DNA of 51,277 nt from Caldifarciminota bacterium (GTDB lineage Bacteria; Hydrothermota; Hydrothermia; Hydrothermales; JAJRUZ01): positions 1 through 51,277 of the forward strand of contig JAJRUZ010000039.1 in assembly GCA_024277525.1 (NCBI GenBank). The letters are read 5' to 3'. Position 1 is the first letter of the stretch. Each line of letters starts with the position of its first letter. Below, piece after piece: positions 30,423-41,611 of this stretch. The position numbers and the translations under genes are program-made. The notes below the pieces were generated by a model. The model was not told where the DNA came from and ran no database searches. It worked only from the letters and a program-made list of their open reading frames with translations.

Positions 30423-31340
30423 ATGAAAACCCTTGAAGAAATAATAAAAGAACTTCCCGAAAATATAAGGCTTCCGATTTATGAAGCATTCCAAGTGTTT
30501 CAAAAGGACATTGTGCACAGGGACCTTTCGGAAATAAAAGAAGAAATCAAAAAGGTATGGGAGGCAATAAACAGTCTTACCGAAGCTCAAGTGAGAACAG
30601 AAGAAAGGGTGAATGAACTTGCGGAGGCACAGAAAAAGACAGAAGAAAGGATGAATGAGCTTGTGGAGGTTCAAAAGAAAACAGAATAAAGGGTGAGTAA
30701 GCTGGAAAAGGTGGTCAAGGAGCTTGCGGAAGCCCAAAAGAAGACCGAAGAAAGGGTAAATGAGCTTGCCGAGGCGCAGAGAAAAACAGAAGAGAGGGTA
30801 AATGAACTTGCCGAGGCGCAGAGAAAAACAGAAGAGAGGGTAACCAAACTGGAAAAGGTGGTCAAGGAGATTGCAGAGGCCCAAAGAGAGACCGAGAGGG
30901 AACTCAGAAAGCTTGCCGAGTCCCATTATAAACTCGTGGAAGAGCACAGGAAAACGAGACAAAAACTTGAAGGTCTTTCCGATGCTTTCGGATATACCCT
31001 TGAGGACAGGGCTATAAAGTCCCTTCCTGTTATTCTTTCAAAGGATTATAAAATAAAAGTTATAGGTAAACTCAAAAGGACATACCTGAAAGTAGGGAAA
31101 GAATATATAGAGGTTAACATCTATGGTAAAGCAAGAAAAGATGGTAAGGAATATGTAATAATAGGGGAGTCAAAGTCAAGGGTTTCAAAGAAAGAGGTTG
31201 ACAGGTTTATTTCAAAATGTGAAAAAATATCAAAGAAATCAATAAGAATCCTTATATCATATCTTTTTACTCCTCAGATTGAAGAATATGCAAAGGAAAA
31301 AGGGATTATACTCATACCTTCCTATGAGCTTTCCCTGTAA
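30423..31340 (+). pseudogene. Coiled-coil nuclease-like protein (distant paralogue) with an internal stop codon
   Basis: Reading one frame gives 305 residues with a TAA at codon 89 (30687-30689). The repeat KKTEERVNEL is coded AAA ACA GAA GAA AGG elsewhere and here AAA ACA GAA TAA AGG, so one G to T change made the stop. The head (LEEIIKELPENIRLPIYEAF) is followed by a long coiled coil of 14-residue units and a C-terminal PD-(D/E)XK-like domain with EVNIYGKAR and IIGESKSRVS. The ExK is kept; the Asp of related genes is Asn. A GTG at 30693 could restart translation of the second half (215 residues). Confidence 0.7.
30756..30839 (+). repeat. Two 42-base tandem repeats in the coiled-coil region
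   Basis: Units 30756-30797 and 30798-30839 differ at one base (GAG versus GAA). Each codes for a 14-residue VNELAEAQRKTEER unit. More diverged units flank them, so the array probably grew by slippage or unequal crossover. Confidence 0.8.
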
Positions 31341-31940: not shown

Positions 31941-33608
31941 ATGTTGTTGTTACTTTTCTTAATATCGGTTAATTCTTTAAAAATAGACAATAAAAAAATT
32001 CTGATTTGCTCCGAGGATAAGGAAGTGAAGGTGTGTGTATTCATTAAAAATTTGAATAAAAGAGAAGTAAAAGCAAATATAAGCGTCATAATTTTTAATT
32101 TAGAGGACAAAATTATATTTTCAAAAAAAGAGCATTTAAATATTCCTCCTTCCGGCTGTTATTTTGATTTTAAATTTAAATCCCGGGAGCCGTTATATTT
32201 GTTGAGAGCGAAAATTAAAGTAGATTATGAAAAAAATACTTTGATCAAAACCGTATATTTTGCAAAATATTATAAACCCATGCAATTTTTGATTTACTAC
32301 CCTTACGATATTTTAAGAAATGTTCCAACTCCTTTTTATGTAAAAGTATATCGAGGAAGCCCGGATAAGCCGGTTAAAAATGCTCAGATAAAGATTTTTC
32401 TCAATAACCGACTCCTTTTGAAAGGACTCACCGATCACAGAGGGGAATATAAAACACCTTTATATGTAAAAGAAGAGAAAAGCGGTAAAATGAGGATTGA
32501 AGTGGAGAAGGGAGCTGAAAAACTGGAGACCGAATTTTTTGTGAGAGTGAAGGGAAAAGAAGAGAATATGGATGTGTATATAACAACGGATAAACCGATT
32601 TATTTACCCGGACAGGAAGTTCATATAAAAATAATGGTTCTGCAAATTCCCGAATTAAAGCCTGTAGAAAATAGAAAATTGTTACTAAGAGTAAGTGACC
32701 CGCATGGAAATGTTATTCTGAAAGATACTTTATATACAAATGAATTCGGCATCGCATATAAAAAATTTAAACTCGCAGATGATATAAGAACGGGTTTTTA
32801 TCACATAGGAGTAAAAGGGGAAAATATTTGGCAATGGCATAGAATAGAAGTTACAGAATATGAACTGCCGAAGTTCGGTATAAATATAGTGTTTGACAAA
32901 GAATATTATACACCGAATGAAAAAGTGGAAGGCAGAATTGAATGTCAATATATCACAGGAGAGCCTGTTGCGGGTGGGATTGTTGAGTTAAAAGTTCTGG
33001 AAAGATGGCAGAATGAAACCTCAAAAATTACAGGACATACGGATAAAGAAGGAAAATATAAATTTTCATTTACTTATCCCGAAGATTATTACGGTGTAAT
33101 ATTAGAACTTACGGTTAAAGATAGTAGTGGATTTGTGGTAACAAAAACTCTACTTGTTCCTTTTCCGAGAATCAAAATTTTACCTCAGGGAGGAAAATTT
33201 GTAAAGGGTTTTAAGAACAAATTTTATGTGCTTTTTAAATCTGTGCCGAATACACCGATAAGCACCGATTTAAAGATAAAAGTTTTAGGTAAAGAATTTA
33301 CCGTTAGGACTGATTCTCTGGGGATAGGAGAAGGTGAAATTTTTATCGGTGAAGATGTTGAAAAAATTGTTTTTGAAATTTCCGACAAAGAAGAAAGATT
33401 TAAGAAAACCTTGCGGTTCAATACTTATGAAGGAGCAACATATACGGTTCTCAAAAAAAGAATATACGGTAAAGGAGAAAAAATACGATTTAAAATACAT
33501 CTTCTTGACCGGAGTGTAAATACAATATTGCTTGCTGTTTCGGAGGCAAAAAGGCTTTATAAAAGAGGAAATATACATATTATATCTTATGATAACTTTG
33601 AAAAGTGA
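31941..33608 (+). CDS. Alpha-2-macroglobulin, N-terminal part
   Basis: 555 residues with a signal peptide (LLLLFLISVNS). MG-type domains follow: MG2 at about 208-300 (VYITTDKPIYLPGQEVHIKI, RVSDPHGNVI) and MG3 at about 305-400 (VTEYELPKFGINI). The frame ends inside the bait-region domain (GKGEKIRFKIHLLDRSV...). The stop overlaps the next frame by GTGA. One extra A in the A4 run at 33601-33604 would fuse the two frames into one 1600-residue protein reading NFEKVIEDSIS. Bacterial macroglobulins trap proteases in the periplasm. Confidence 0.85.
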   Translation: MLLLLFLISVNSLKIDNKKILICSEDKEVKVCVFIKNLNKREVKANISVIIFNLEDKIIFSKKEHLNIPPSGCYFDFKFKSREPLYLLRAKIKVDYEKNTLIKTVYFAKYYKPMQFLIYYPYDILRNVPTPFYVKVYRGSPDKPVKNAQIKIFLNNRLLLKGLTDHRGEYKTPLYVKEEKSGKMRIEVEKGAEKLETEFFVRVKGKEENMDVYITTDKPIYLPGQEVHIKIMVLQIPELKPVENRKLLLRVSDPHGNVILKDTLYTNEFGIAYKKFKLADDIRTGFYHIGVKGENIWQWHRIEVTEYELPKFGINIVFDKEYYTPNEKVEGRIECQYITGEPVAGGIVELKVLERWQNETSKITGHTDKEGKYKFSFTYPEDYYGVILELTVKDSSGFVVTKTLLVPFPRIKILPQGGKFVKGFKNKFYVLFKSVPNTPISTDLKIKVLGKEFTVRTDSLGIGEGEIFIGEDVEKIVFEISDKEERFKKTLRFNTYEGATYTVLKKRIYGKGEKIRFKIHLLDRSVNTILLAVSEAKRLYKRGNIHIISYDNFEK

Positions 33609-36600
33609 TAGAAGATTCAATTTCTCTCCCGGAAGAAATAAAAGGCTATGCAGAAATAAATATTTTTTCTATTCTTTCTGACGGAACGATAAAAAGGGAA
33701 GGGAAAATAATATATGTTGAACCGAAAGAAAGTGTTGATATAATTATTGAACCTGATAAAGCTGAATACGAACCCGGTGAAGAAGGAATTGTTAATATAA
33801 AAGTCAGAAAAAACGGAAAGAAAATAAGGGCATGTTTGGGAGTTTCCATTGTTGATAGTTCGGTATTTAGTCTTTTAAAAGATGCTCTAATTGACGAGGA
33901 AATATATTTTAAAGGCAAACTCTTCATACCCGGTTATTTTATAAGTCCCTATTATTTTAATAAAAAGCTTACACTCTCCAAAATAATTAGAAAAAAAAGA
34001 AAAAGAATTACGGATATAATTTTTTCAGAAAAAGAACAAGATTATCGTTTCAGAAGCAGTCTGAAAGGCAGAAAAGTAGAACACCGATATTCTCATGAAT
34101 TTGCTGAAAAAATAGAAACAAAAATAAAGAAAATCGGAGAACGGATTAAAGATTTTATAGAAAATAATAAAGAAATACCTGATTCTCTTTTAATTGATCC
34201 TTTCGGAGATACCTTAGAGTATACGGTTTTTGGTAATTTGTTGTTTTTAAATTCCAAGGGAATAGACAGGATAAAAAACACATATGATGATATTTCCGTT
34301 TCAATTAGATTCAGTGAAGAGTATATAGCTGCTAAAGGCACGGGAATAATAAAGGGAAAGGTGATAGATGCTGTTACCGATGAAGGACTACCCTTTGCGG
34401 TTGTTAGAATAAAAAATACTCGGATGGGAGCTTACACTGATGATAGGGGATTTTACACTATCTATAACGTCCCTGTAGGAGTCTATGAAATTACAGTTAG
34501 TTACACAGGTTATAAATCCTTAACAATAAAAAATGTCATTGTAGAGAAAGGTAAAACCGTGGAAGTTAACTTTGCATTAGAACCGACCGTTTCAGAGGTT
34601 GAACCTATAATTCTTGAAGCAAGAGCAAAAGCCGGCGCTGAAATTCCGCCCCCAGACATCAAAATAAGAAAATATTTTCCTGAGACATTTATTTTTATTC
34701 CCTCTTTGATTACCGATAGGGACGGAAATGCGAAGTTGAGTTTGAAGTTCCCTGATAATATTACTGTCTGGAAGATGAAAACCGTTGCAATTACAAAAGA
34801 AGGTCTTTTAAATGTTGAATATTCTCCTATAAAGGTTTTTAAGAGTTTTTATCTGGATTTAAATATTCCTCAAATTTTGACACAGGGAGATGAAGTATAT
34901 GTGCCCGTGAGTATCCATAATAACACTACTCAGGATATAAAGTGCAATATTAAAATTGAAACTTCTGCCGAAATAAAAGTTGATGATGATATTTTAAAAA
35001 CAGCAGTTGTAAAAAGCAAAGAGATAAAGACGGTATATTTTAAAATAAAAGCAATTAAATCAGGTCTCGGTATAATAAGGGTATATGCATGGAACGGAAA
35101 GGAAAAGGATGCCATTGAGAAAAAAATAAAAATAAGATTTTACGGAAAAGAGGAGAAGTTTATTAAGAGTGGAATGATAAAGGCGGGGGAGGGAAAAAGT
35201 ATTGATGTTGATATAAAAAGTGATAACATAGAATATTTTTATTTCAAAATCTATAAAAACAATCTCGGATTAACGATTAAAGCCTTTGAGTCGCTATTGA
35301 TAAAACCTCACGGTTGTTTTGAACAGGTTTCCTCCATCCTTTATCCCGAAATTCTTATTTTTAACATTATTAAAAAACAAAAAATAAAAGATGAGAATTT
35401 AAAAAGAAAAATCTCAGAATATATATCACTCGGTTATCAGAAGATACTTAAATATGAAGTCAAAGGAGGGGGATTTTCCTGGTATGGAAAAAAGCCTGCT
35501 GATTTATTTTTAACCGCTTACGGACTCATGGAGTTAAATGATTTGAAAAAAGTTTTCCCTGTTGATGAGTATCTCATTGATAGGACAGTAAGATGGTTGT
35601 TATCTCAGCAGAATAGGGACGGAAGTTGGACATCAATGAGGAAGTTTCATTTCTTAAAAAATAAAAAATATTCAAAAATATTGACTACTGCTTATGTTTT
35701 ATGGGCACTTATAGAGGCAGGGACGAAGGATAGAAAAATTAAAAAAGGTATAAGATTTTTAAAAGAAAATATAAATGATGTAAAAGACCCTTATGTTCTC
35801 GGAATATTACTTAATTGTTTTGCTTCCTATAATCCTGAATCGGAGGAGACAAAAAGGATTGCTTCCTTGGTTGTAAAATTAGGAAAATACAGTGAAAAGG
35901 GAATTTTCTGGGATTCGGGAATTCCTTCTTTTACTTACAGCACGGGATATTTTCGTAAAATGGAAACTGTTTCCCTTATTGGGCTGGGACTTTTAAAGGC
36001 AAATCTCTATAAGGAAGTAGTTTTTAATTCAATAAGATTTATTTTAAATAATAAGAAATATGAAAATACATGGGGCACAACACAGAGCACAGTTCTTATT
36101 CTTAAACTTTTAAATGAATGTTATAATGATTTCTTTTCTGTGCCAAAGGGGTATACCGAAATTGTTGTAAATAATAAAAAAATAAAAACATTTGATTTAA
36201 GTGAAATAAAAAATAATGTGATTGTTTTTGATATTAAAAAGTATCTGAATAAGGCGAAAAATAACATTAATATTAAGTTTAAAGGGAAAGGGTATATAAT
36301 ATATGAATTCGCGGGGAAATATTATAAAAATTGGAGAGCCGTGAGAGAAAGGGAAAGTTCAATTGCATTGGATATAAAATATACAAAATTGAGAAAAGGG
36401 AGCAATAAGTATGTGAGGGTGAAATGTTCTGTAAAAAATTTGAATTCAAATCCCTTTTATTTCGGTATACTGGAGGTAGGATTGCCTCCGGGTTTTTATG
36501 TGTCAAAAAGTGAGTTTCAAAAATTAATGGGAAGCAAGTCAGTTATAAAAAATTTTGAAATAAGAAAAGACAGAATTATTTTGTATTTAAAGAATTTAGA

Positions 36601-36742
36601 ACCTTACGAAGCCTCAAGATTTTCTTTCAACATTTATCCTAAGTTTAAAATGAAGGTTAAAACTTTTCCTTCTTTTATTTATGAGTATTACAGCCCTGAC
36701 AATTTTGCATTTGTCAGACCGGTTGTTTTAAAAACAGACTGA
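33605..36742 (+). CDS. Alpha-2-macroglobulin, thioester-containing part with inserted TonB-receptor-like module
   Basis: 1045 residues from a GTG that overlaps the preceding stop. Order: rest of the bait-region domain (LGVSIVDSSVFSL, about 77-90), a basic linker, a carboxypeptidase-regulatory-like domain (about 245-325: IIKGKVIDAVTDEGLPFAVV, GAYTDDRGFYTIYNVPVGVY), the A2M/MG7 domain (IRKYFPETFIFIPSLITD), then the thioester domain with PHGCFEQ (Cys571) and C-terminal receptor-type domain. The GCxEQ thioester is intact, so covalent capture is possible. The inserted module sits where the protease bait belongs. No pbpC gene is nearby. Confidence 0.88.
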   Translation: MIEDSISLPEEIKGYAEINIFSILSDGTIKREGKIIYVEPKESVDIIIEPDKAEYEPGEEGIVNIKVRKNGKKIRACLGVSIVDSSVFSLLKDALIDEEIYFKGKLFIPGYFISPYYFNKKLTLSKIIRKKRKRITDIIFSEKEQDYRFRSSLKGRKVEHRYSHEFAEKIETKIKKIGERIKDFIENNKEIPDSLLIDPFGDTLEYTVFGNLLFLNSKGIDRIKNTYDDISVSIRFSEEYIAAKGTGIIKGKVIDAVTDEGLPFAVVRIKNTRMGAYTDDRGFYTIYNVPVGVYEITVSYTGYKSLTIKNVIVEKGKTVEVNFALEPTVSEVEPIILEARAKAGAEIPPPDIKIRKYFPETFIFIPSLITDRDGNAKLSLKFPDNITVWKMKTVAITKEGLLNVEYSPIKVFKSFYLDLNIPQILTQGDEVYVPVSIHNNTTQDIKCNIKIETSAEIKVDDDILKTAVVKSKEIKTVYFKIKAIKSGLGIIRVYAWNGKEKDAIEKKIKIRFYGKEEKFIKSGMIKAGEGKSIDVDIKSDNIEYFYFKIYKNNLGLTIKAFESLLIKPHGCFEQVSSILYPEILIFNIIKKQKIKDENLKRKISEYISLGYQKILKYEVKGGGFSWYGKKPADLFLTAYGLMELNDLKKVFPVDEYLIDRTVRWLLSQQNRDGSWTSMRKFHFLKNKKYSKILTTAYVLWALIEAGTKDRKIKKGIRFLKENINDVKDPYVLGILLNCFASYNPESEETKRIASLVVKLGKYSEKGIFWDSGIPSFTYSTGYFRKMETVSLIGLGLLKANLYKEVVFNSIRFILNNKKYENTWGTTQSTVLILKLLNECYNDFFSVPKGYTEIVVNNKKIKTFDLSEIKNNVIVFDIKKYLNKAKNNINIKFKGKGYIIYEFAGKYYKNWRAVRERESSIALDIKYTKLRKGSNKYVRVKCSVKNLNSNPFYFGILEVGLPPGFYVSKSEFQKLMGSKSVIKNFEIRKDRIILYLKNLEPYEASRFSFNIYPKFKMKVKTFPSFIYEYYSPDNFAFVRPVVLKTD

Positions 36743-39850: not shown

Positions 39851-40737
39851 ATATTATAATTCTAAGATTTTCCTCAGGCGGAGATTTAATTCTCATAACA
39901 GGAATTATAGATAAGCTTTTAAAAAAGAACTTAAATGTTACACTTGTTGTAAAAAAAAGATTTAAGGAAATCTTTGAAGGATTTAAAAACCTGAGAATAA
40001 TAGAGTTTGAAGAGCATGAAGAAATTTTAGGCAAAGAATATGATTATGCTTTTGACCTTCAGAAAAATTTGAGAAGTTTTTTTATGATGAGAAAAATAAA
40101 GGCAAAGAGAAAGTTTTTTGCAAATAAGAGAAGTATTAAAAGAAGGATACATCTTTATTTCAGATTTCCTTTAAGGGAAAAATCTTTTATAAAGATATTT
40201 GCAGAACCCTTTGAAAGAGTATTCCAGGAAAATTTTTATTTAAGACCTGTTTTAAAATCAGAAAAAGAATTTAAAGGACTTCCTGAAAAATACATTTTAA
40301 TTGCCCCATTCTCTTCAAAACCGAAAAAAGATCTTTCGCATAAAGTCTTAAAAAAAATATTGGAAAATGAAAGCAAAGATAAAATATGTATAATTGTAGG
40401 TGATAAAAAGAGTAAAGAAAAAAAATTGCCTTTAATTAATAAAAATATTATAGATATAAGGGGAGAAACAAGTTTGAGGGAACTTTTTTATGTAGTAAAA
40501 AAGTCTTCATATATAATTACCGTGGACTCAATGATTTCACATATAGCAAGTGCTTATGAAAAAGAAGGCTTTGTAATTTTCGGTCCAACTACTCCTTTAT
40601 ACGGTTTTTATCCTTACGGAGATAAATTAAAAGTAATTCACAAAAAAATTCCCTGTTCTCCCTGCTCTCTACATGGAGAGGGAATTTGTTTGTTTAATAA
40701 AAAATGTTATGAAATAAATTTCAATTTTAAAATTTAA
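39847..40737 (+). CDS. Glycosyltransferase family 9 (heptosyltransferase-like)
   Basis: 296 residues from a GTG overlapping the preceding stop. IIILRFSSGGDLILITGIID at the start, YDYAFDLQKNLRSFFM, and the donor site TVDSMISHIASAYEKEGFVIFGPTTPLYGFYPYG match GT9. The end CSPCSLHGEGICLFNKKCYE is the usual Cys-rich tail. Such enzymes add heptose or similar sugars to lipopolysaccharide core. Convergent with the barrel gene, overlapping it by 11 bases. Confidence 0.9.
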   Translation: MNIIILRFSSGGDLILITGIIDKLLKKNLNVTLVVKKRFKEIFEGFKNLRIIEFEEHEEILGKEYDYAFDLQKNLRSFFMMRKIKAKRKFFANKRSIKRRIHLYFRFPLREKSFIKIFAEPFERVFQENFYLRPVLKSEKEFKGLPEKYILIAPFSSKPKKDLSHKVLKKILENESKDKICIIVGDKKSKEKKLPLINKNIIDIRGETSLRELFYVVKKSSYIITVDSMISHIASAYEKEGFVIFGPTTPLYGFYPYGDKLKVIHKKIPCSPCSLHGEGICLFNKKCYEINFNFKI

Positions 40738-41611
40738 AAATACCTTTTAAAGTAAACCCGAATCTTGTTACATAATCATTTTTACCAGCTATTGAAAATC
40801 CATAGGGTAGGTACTCTTCGGTAACTGCAAAATCAAGACCCAAGCTTAAAGGAAAAGCAGGTAAAGAAATTCTTACATAAGGATAAATTGATATATGATT
40901 ACCATCAGAATCTTTCTCTTCTGTACCATTTATTTTAATTGCTGTTCTTATCTTATATAAAAAAGAAAGTCCTATGGTACCGAAAGGAAATTTATATCCT
41001 GCCTTCAGAATTAGACCAAAATGGTCTCCACAATCATATTTAATTTTCGTGGTATCACCAAAAGGATTCCATATGGTAGGAAGGGGAGATTCTTTTTCAA
41101 GTGTTAAAAAGTACATTATTCCTCCCTTGAGATCGATTACAGGATTCGGAAGATTTCCGCAGATTTTAACAAAGATCGCGTTTTGTCGATCCGAATTTCC
41201 AATCTTATCGTTTGCTAAGTCAAATTCAGGACCCAAATCCGCCATAAATCCTACAATACTCTTCAAAAAAGCAGCTTTCATTCCTATAAAAAAAGAAATA
41301 TTTTGAGGAGAAAAACCACTTGATAGATTTTCTTCATAGGTGGTTCCTAAGATTGTATAAGAATAATTAAATGAAGCATTCACAACTCTTAAATTAAGTC
41401 CCCCAAACATATCAAAGGCAGGCAGTTTATAGAAACTGTATATTCCACCAAGATCAAGTGTCAAAATAGAAGCTTTGCCATTTAAAAATAAGGTTGTATC
41501 TTTTCCATCTTCATTATACCATTTATCACTTGTACCATATCCTATTTTCATCCAAGCTTTTCCCCCTGCGAAAAGGGGAATTGCTATGAGCAAGGGTAGT
41601 ATTTTTTTCAT
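40727..41611 (-). CDS. Outer-membrane beta-barrel protein
   Basis: 294 residues with a signal peptide (KKILPLLIAIPLFAGG). The mature part alternates polar and hydrophobic residues in strands (FGLILKAGYKFPFGTIGLSFLY, PYVRISLPAFPLSLGLDFAV) and ends in a strand with terminal Phe (YVTRFGFTLKGIFKF), the BAM recognition signal. Specific substrate unknown. AGGAG lies before the ATG, and a T-arm-like hairpin lies about 23 bases further up. Confidence 0.85.
   Translation of the reverse strand: MKKILPLLIAIPLFAGGKAWMKIGYGTSDKWYNEDGKDTTLFLNGKASILTLDLGGIYSFYKLPAFDMFGGLNLRVVNASFNYSYTILGTTYEENLSSGFSPQNISFFIGMKAAFLKSIVGFMADLGPEFDLANDKIGNSDRQNAIFVKICGNLPNPVIDLKGGIMYFLTLEKESPLPTIWNPFGDTTKIKYDCGDHFGLILKAGYKFPFGTIGLSFLYKIRTAIKINGTEEKDSDGNHISIYPYVRISLPAFPLSLGLDFAVTEEYLPYGFSIAGKNDYVTRFGFTLKGIFKF

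What the first reader, a model, noticed from the sequence alone, without database searches (positions are those of the whole stretch)
34330..34640. TonB-receptor-like module in place of the macroglobulin bait
Between the bait-region domain and the A2M domain lies GKVIDAVTDEGLPFAVVRIK through FALEPTVSEVEPIILEA. This copies the carboxypeptidase-regulatory domain plus the linker that precedes the plug in TonB-dependent receptors. It sits where a protease should cut to spring the trap. The trap may be triggered differently or docked to an outer-membrane partner. Related insertions exist in some FCB macroglobulins.
Basis: partly seen in the sequence, partly recalled or inferred. Interest (0 to 1): 0.6.

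Follow-up and report, generated by a model that had tools for sequence, protein, structure and literature searches.

The report
TonB-receptor module inside bacterial macroglobulin bait
A bacterial protease-trapping protein carries, in the segment that proteases cut to spring the trap, a piece copied from the same lineage's nutrient receptors; surveys show that this slot has taken up parts of other cell-envelope machines more than once, which seems not to have been described.

Summary
In an alpha-2-macroglobulin (A2M) split over two overlapping ORFs (31941-33608, 33605-36742), a CarboxypepD_reg domain (34349-34603; E 2e-18) plus the TonB-receptor linker lies between the linker helix and the alpha'NT motif IRKYFPET, where human A2M has its bait and complement C3 its anaphylatoxin domain. 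The module groups with TonB-dependent receptors (TBDTs) of the same bacterial family (58% identity to one in this genome, beside tonB).

"In place of the bait" is only partly right. The slot already held another domain: orthologues carry a type II secretion pseudopilin (GspG/T2SSG) domain there, and the window keeps a decayed copy. The linker after the module still occupies the bait's C-terminal position, and thioester and alpha'NT are intact, so ordinary protease triggering remains most likely.

It is not unique. Another A2M subfamily of the phylum and Bacteroidota A2Ms carry CarboxypepD_reg, TonB-box and even plug segments in the bait. The AU test rejects one shared origin of the modules (p 0.024), so recruitment was probably repeated. 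No paper found describes it.

TonB docking or pulling is untested. The reading frame is broken, so expression of this copy is unproven. New variant of a known kind.

The parts
31941..33608 (+). ORF1, N-terminal half of the A2M (555 aa; short hydrophobic N-terminus MLLLLFLISV; MG2 at aa 211-294, MG3 at aa 306-378, ends inside MG5)
   Evidence: ORF list; Pfam MG2 6e-26, MG3 5e-9
33600..33608 (+). Frame break between the halves: GAAAAGTGA; ORF2 GTG overlaps ORF1 TGA (GTGA), -1 frame; protein homology runs on without loss
   Evidence: sequence; alignment with unbroken relatives
33605..36742 (+). ORF2, C-terminal half of the A2M (1045 aa): rest of MG5, MG6 with the bait slot, MG7, CUB/TED, receptor-binding domain
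   Evidence: AlphaFold model pLDDT 77, best Foldseek matches human A2ML1 and CD109
33857..33901 (+). Helix after the first MG6 strands (aa 85-99), equivalent of the LNK helix where the bait slot begins
   Evidence: DSSP on model; LNK helix described in PMC9352918
34061..34309 (+). Decayed pseudopilin (T2SSG/GspG-like) domain in the bait slot (aa 153-235)
   Evidence: profile of relatives scores 17.8 bits vs best of 2000 shuffles 9.2; long helix plus strands in model; Pfam T2SSG in 24 of 26 baits of the family set
34259..34291 (+). GIDRIKNTYDD, altered form of the pseudopilin calcium motif GxDGxx[GN][TN]xDD (aa 219-229)
   Evidence: motif scan; motif described in PMC3396595
34349..34603 (+). 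CarboxypepD_reg module of TBDT type (aa 249-333)
   Evidence: Pfam E 2.3e-18; 58% identity to own-genome TBDT, clade support 95/99; PDB relatives carboxypeptidase D and a TonB-linked receptor
34598..34621 (+). TonB-box-like string VEPIILEA (aa 332-339; VEPIVVEA in family TBDTs, AETIVVEA in the own-genome one)
   Evidence: sequence comparison
34604..34660 (+). Flexible linker between module and alpha'NT (aa 334-352), likeliest scissile bait segment
   Evidence: pLDDT below 50 over 314-345; position equals C-terminal end of human A2M bait
34661..34687 (+). alpha'NT 'plug' motif KIRKYFPET (aa 353-361; equivalents of human R732 and F735)
   Evidence: invariant R355, F358, P359, E360, T361 in 50 sequences; aligned to human VRKYFPETW
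34685..34954 (+). A2M domain PF00207 (aa 361-450)
   Evidence: Pfam E 4.6e-19
35312..35326 (+). Thioester motif GCFEQ (aa 570-574)
   Evidence: invariant in 50 sequences
35255..36112 (+). Thioester domain (TED, aa 551-836)
   Evidence: Pfam E 3.5e-27
36467..36709 (+). Receptor-binding domain (A2M_recep, aa 955-1035)
   Evidence: Pfam E 1.2e-13

Best explanation
It is a thioester-type bacterial A2M protease trap of a WOR-3-type bacterium whose bait slot is a landing site for foreign envelope domains. Ancestrally the slot holds a pseudopilin (GspG) domain and a flexible tail; in this lineage the pseudopilin decayed and the N-terminal module of a TonB-dependent receptor (CarboxypepD_reg plus pre-plug linker) was copied into the tail. 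Shown: domain content, position, source clade, intact thioester and alpha'NT. Inferred: a protease cuts the exposed linker after the module (or a loop of it), alpha'NT pulls back through its channel, and the thioester captures the protease, as in other A2Ms. The folded modules act as a periplasm-proof spacer and presenter of the scissile segment, as the anaphylatoxin domain does in the same slot of complement C3/C4/C5. The broken reading frame means that expression of this particular copy is not established.
For: Module and A2M domains at high significance. Slot placed by the model (linker helix 85-99, MG6 resumes at 354-369), by Foldseek to native A2ML1/CD109 and by alignment to human A2M, whose bait lies just before VRKYFPETW; PMC9156758 states that LNK plus bait form one insert in MG6 and that complement has an anaphylatoxin domain there. 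Ancestral T2SSG domain; decayed copy in the window. Module from own-family TBDTs. Conserved trigger parts (R355, F358, GCFEQ): with the trigger mechanism in PMC9352918. Recurrence in other A2Ms; one origin of all A2M-borne modules rejected, p-AU 0.024.
Against: No biochemical data. The gene is split by a frame shift, and ORF2 alone has no signal peptide. The A2M core is on a very long branch, so function may have drifted. The module itself is modelled poorly (pLDDT 24-63, no module homologues in the alignment). Cleavage inside the module or the pseudopilin remnant, not the linker, is equally possible.
Confidence: 0.6

Rival explanations
1. TonB-coupled trap: the TonB-box-like linker in the bait binds the C-terminal domain of TonB, which docks the A2M at the inner-membrane TonB-ExbBD complex or pulls the bait so that alpha'NT leaves its channel without proteolysis.
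For: The linker keeps the pattern of the family's TBDT linker (VEPIILEA vs VEPIVVEA). The genome has TonB, and the nearest TBDT lies beside exbD/tonB. In related A2Ms TonB-box-like EVVV strings occur in 12 of 33 baits against 0.35 in shuffles and 0 of 95 windows elsewhere in the same proteins, and some persist where no CarboxypepD_reg or plug is evident (e.g. L249, L251, L278).
Against: No binding test. Two of the WOR-3 A2Ms with the module (L203, L204) have lost the box. The baits are related to each other, and an unremoved remnant explains the motif as well. Pulling from the N-terminal side is opposite to the natural direction of alpha'NT retraction.
Confidence: 0.1
2. Substrate mimicry: the bait copies envelope segments that hostile or the cell's own periplasmic proteases attack (receptor N-terminus, pseudopilin), so the trap is tuned to those proteases.
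For: Both recruited modules come from periplasm-facing parts of envelope machines (TBDT N-terminus, GspG). The linker is unstructured in the model.
Against: No protease known to prefer these segments was examined. GspG and CarboxypepD_reg are compact folds, usually poor substrates. Some Chloroflexota-type baits carry hydrophobic helices instead, which fits a permissive slot better.
Confidence: 0.12
3. Decaying gene: the A2M of this genome is a recent pseudogene (frame shift) on a fast-evolving branch, and the module is a neutral insertion.
For: Frame break in an A4 run with no classical slippery heptamer. No orthologue in the same family, order or class. Very long branch. A second, intact A2M is present in the genome.
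Against: Both halves are otherwise open over 555 and 1045 codons, and the family's invariant residues, including the thioester and alpha'NT, are kept. A single missing A in a metagenome assembly is also a common artefact.
Confidence: 0.18

Closest known systems
WOR-3 and other A2M orthologues with a T2SSG domain in the bait (L035-L070, L073-L150)
   Same: Same A2M subfamily (30-35% identity in the phylum), same slot, same alpha'NT and thioester
   Different: They keep a recognisable GspG domain with calcium-type loop and an A/P/K/E-rich tail; they have no CarboxypepD_reg or TonB-box linker
A2M WP_309942313.1 of Aureibacter tunicatorum (Bacteroidota) and kin (L242, L253, L255, L277, L279)
   Same: CarboxypepD_reg module, in several with TonB box, in the bait slot just before the A2M domain
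   Different: Different A2M subfamily (mostly NETAFF type) with SusC-type modules; L253 and L255 also carry the plug domain
A2M subfamily of WOR-3 with module in bait (L187, L203, L204, L266)
   Same: Same phylum, same slot, TBDT-type module
   Different: Different A2M subfamily; modules group elsewhere than with the window's own-family TBDTs (p-AU 0.046 against one clade with the window)
Own-genome TonB-dependent receptor at G000:C32 (L033, 1096 aa)
   Same: 58% identical module, same linker layout
   Different: Full receptor with plug and barrel beside exbD and tonB
Complement C3/C4/C5 with anaphylatoxin domain
   Same: A folded domain occupies the A2M bait slot, with cleavage on its C-terminal side releasing alpha'NT
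   Different: Unrelated domain, furin-cut at its N-terminal side, released as a signalling fragment
E. coli/Salmonella A2M (ECAM, SaA2M; YfhM)
   Same: Periplasmic bacterial protease trap, bait in the equivalent MG domain
   Different: 10 MG domains, lipoprotein, short disordered bait, weak sequence similarity (E 3e-9)

Membership tests
Alpha-2-macroglobulin superfamily | MG domains, A2M (PF00207), TED and receptor-binding domain in order | tested here: met
   Pfam; Foldseek to A2ML1/CD109 E 5e-44
Alpha-2-macroglobulin superfamily | CXEQ thioester motif | tested here: met
   GCFEQ at aa 570-574, invariant in 50 sequences
Alpha-2-macroglobulin superfamily | Bait insert in MG6 followed by alpha'NT RxxF | tested here: met
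   IRKYFPET aligned to human VRKYFPETW; model
Alpha-2-macroglobulin superfamily | One exported polypeptide | tested here: inconclusive
   Two ORFs with a -1 frame break as assembled; N-terminus of ORF1 only weakly signal-like. May be an assembly error
Alpha-2-macroglobulin superfamily | Protease trapping | not testable with these tools
   Needs protein
TonB-dependent receptor | N-terminal CarboxypepD_reg module | tested here: met
TonB-dependent receptor | Plug and beta-barrel | tested here: not met
   No Plug or barrel match in ORF2; only the module and linker were copied, so it is not filed as a receptor
TonB-dependent receptor | TonB box | tested here: inconclusive
   VEPIILEA resembles the family's linker VEPIVVEA but lacks the classical ETIVV form
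T2SS pseudopilin G (T2SSG) | Pfam PF08334 over cut-off in the window itself | tested here: not met
   No match for the window bait even at E 10
T2SS pseudopilin G (T2SSG) | Homology through the family's own baits | tested here: met
   17.8 bits vs shuffle maximum 9.2, 0 of 2000

The most novel reading that the evidence does not exclude
FCB-group macroglobulins have repeatedly taken TonB-box-bearing receptor segments into the bait because TonB acts on them: the trap is docked to, or mechanically set off by, the proton-driven TonB complex, which would be a natural non-proteolytic trigger of an A2M.
Probability: 0.07. Interest if true: 0.92.

Novelty: new variant of a known kind. Interest (0 to 1): 0.55.

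Why it matters
The bait is usually pictured as a short disordered stretch, with complement's anaphylatoxin as the exception. Here the same slot holds pseudopilin domains across many phyla, TonB-receptor segments in at least two A2M subfamilies, and in some Chloroflexota-type baits about six predicted membrane helices. The anaphylatoxin insertion would then be one case of a general tolerance of the slot. It makes two questions testable: what a folded domain in the bait does to triggering, and whether TonB can act on proteins other than receptors.

Tried and rejected
DNA-level copying from the own receptor: only 69 bases at 80% identity, so the copying is not recent. One origin for all A2M-borne modules: rejected, p-AU 0.024, though the tree has few strongly supported branches. 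Pfam T2SSG in the window itself: none, hence the family-profile test. CAP18_C match to the bait helix: a 20-residue cationic helix, treated as chance. A -1 ribosomal frameshift: the site GAAAAGTGA is no X XXY YYZ heptamer, so an indel is likelier. The first regular expression for classifying baits failed to sort the proteins; the baits were re-extracted. The core tree placed the window on a very long branch next to another long one, so its exact placement and any transfer history are left open. Literature: searches joining macroglobulin with TonB, plug, TonB box or pseudopilin found no description; only open-licence PMC papers are held.

Full report
Observation. ORF 33605-36742 (1045 aa, GTG start) contains the quoted peptide, and ORF 31941-33608 (555 aa) lies directly upstream. 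Pfam gives MG2 and MG3 in ORF1, and CarbopepD_reg_2 (aa 249-333, E 2.3e-18), A2M (361-450), TED (551-836) and A2M_recep (955-1035) in ORF2. The two ORFs overlap by GTGA with a -1 shift at 33600-33608. Unbroken relatives align across the break without missing residues, so a one-base deletion (real, or from assembly) is the simplest reading. ORF2 on its own would start with MIEDSISLPEE and lacks a signal peptide, so two separate chains would hardly work in the periplasm. This last step is inference.

Where the module sits. An AlphaFold model of ORF2 (50 aligned relatives, mean pLDDT 77) has the last MG6 strand before the slot at 76-84, a helix at 85-99, a long helix at 153-187 with strands up to 235, a low-confidence region over the module, and MG6 resuming at 354-369. 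Foldseek finds native human A2ML1 and CD109 as best matches. The family profile aligns residues just after the module (IRKYFPETFIF) to human A2M VRKYFPETWIW, the alpha'NT segment. PMC9352918 describes how this segment, with conserved R732 and F735, threads a channel and is released by bait cleavage. PMC9156758 states that LNK and bait are one insert in MG6 and that complement carries an anaphylatoxin domain there. The module is therefore inside the bait insert. It does not remove the scissile end: residues 334-352 remain as flexible linker, and R355, F358 and GCFEQ are invariant in 50 sequences.

What was there before. Orthologues occur in 32 of 147 genomes of the phylum (WOR-3 by the titles of matching records; the count includes the window's own genome), but in none of the same family, order or class. 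Their baits carry a T2SSG domain: Pfam in 24 of 26 members of a cross-phylum set, profile match to pseudopilin 3g20 at E 2e-10, model confidence 90-98 and Foldseek best match 3g20 at E 1.8e-3. Most show the GPDGxxxTxDD loop that PMC3396595 describes as calcium-binding in pseudopilin. The window's bait matches that family profile at 17.8 bits against a best of 9.2 in 2000 shuffles and reads GIDRIKNTYDD at the loop; Pfam's T2SSG model does not see it.

Where the module came from. The best matches in 60 related genomes are TBDTs of the same genome and family, covering module and linker. In a tree of 25 modules the window's groups with the four family TBDTs at 95/99, nearest the own-genome receptor at 58% identity. 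That receptor follows exbB/exbD-like genes (recognised by eye) and tonB (Pfam) on contig C32. DNA similarity is limited to 69 bases at 80%, so the copying is old.

How widespread. A different A2M subfamily of the same phylum carries a TBDT-type module in the bait (L187, L203, L204; L266). In the phylum of G208, unnamed but with SusC-type sequences typical of Bacteroidota, several A2Ms carry CarboxypepD_reg, a TonB-box string or a plug segment in the bait (L253, L255, L280, L283 among others). A named Bacteroidota example is Aureibacter tunicatorum WP_309942313.1, with CarbopepD_reg_2 at 1132-1214 and A2M at 1303-1389. Holding all seven A2M-borne modules of the tree in one clade is rejected at p-AU 0.024, and the WOR-3 ones with the window at 0.046; with few well-supported branches this favours, without proving, repeated recruitment.

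The TonB box. EVVV-type strings occur in 12 of 33 baits of the module-bearing subfamily, against 0.35 expected in shuffles (maximum 4) and 0 of 95 windows elsewhere in the same proteins. These proteins are related, so the count is not of independent events. In L249, L251 and L278 the string stands without an evident module, which could be retention under selection or an eroded remnant. The window has VEPIILEA where family receptors have VEPIVVEA.

Mechanism. Best supported: an ordinary A2M trap with folded spacer domains in the bait and a cut in the linker before alpha'NT, with the anaphylatoxin domain as the structural parallel. TonB docking or pulling, and substrate mimicry, are open rivals without direct evidence. 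A decaying gene is a live alternative for this copy alone, given the frame break and the very long branch; it does not touch the finding in the relatives.

Novelty. Searches of open-licence papers joining macroglobulin with TonB, plug domain, TonB box or pseudopilin found no description. The architecture is visible in database annotation (PGAP calls the Aureibacter protein 'carboxypeptidase-like regulatory domain-containing'), so it is a new variant of a known kind and not a new kind.

Noticed in passing
L109:1581-2642, L125:3241-4344, L129:3235-4308, L142:3235-4311 (Chloroflexi/Anaerolineae records); L131:3092-3760 (Omnitrophica): A2M baits that hold six or seven (L131: two) strongly hydrophobic segments, as if the bait crossed a membrane several times between the two halves of the trap.
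   Followed up: partly
L073-L150 bait segments (coordinates): A GspG pseudopilin domain in the bait of an A2M subfamily spread over Armatimonadota, Poribacteria, Hydrogenedentota, Planctomycetota, WOR-3 and others; apparently undescribed.
   Followed up: yes
L253, L255, L254, L280, L283: A2M baits that contain a plug segment of SusC-type receptors (LYVVDG... LKG..AT.IYG....NGVI), not just the N-terminal module.
   Followed up: partly
L034:1746-6305 (G000 contig C100): A second A2M of the same genome, unbroken (1520 aa), with a short conventional bait.
   Followed up: partly
window 33600-33608: One-base frame break in the A2M gene at an A4 run; assembly error, mutation or split gene not decided.
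   Followed up: partly
L269:247-3001 (G000 contig C32): Two exbD-like genes, tonB and a TonB-dependent receptor in a row, preceded by an exbB-like end; likely home operon of the module's nearest relative.
   Followed up: partly
window 30693-31340: Coiled-coil protein with repeats (LAEAQRKTEERVN) and a C-terminal part of unknown family; no Pfam match.
   Followed up: no
window 40727-41611 (-): Probable exported barrel-like protein without a Pfam match.
   Followed up: no
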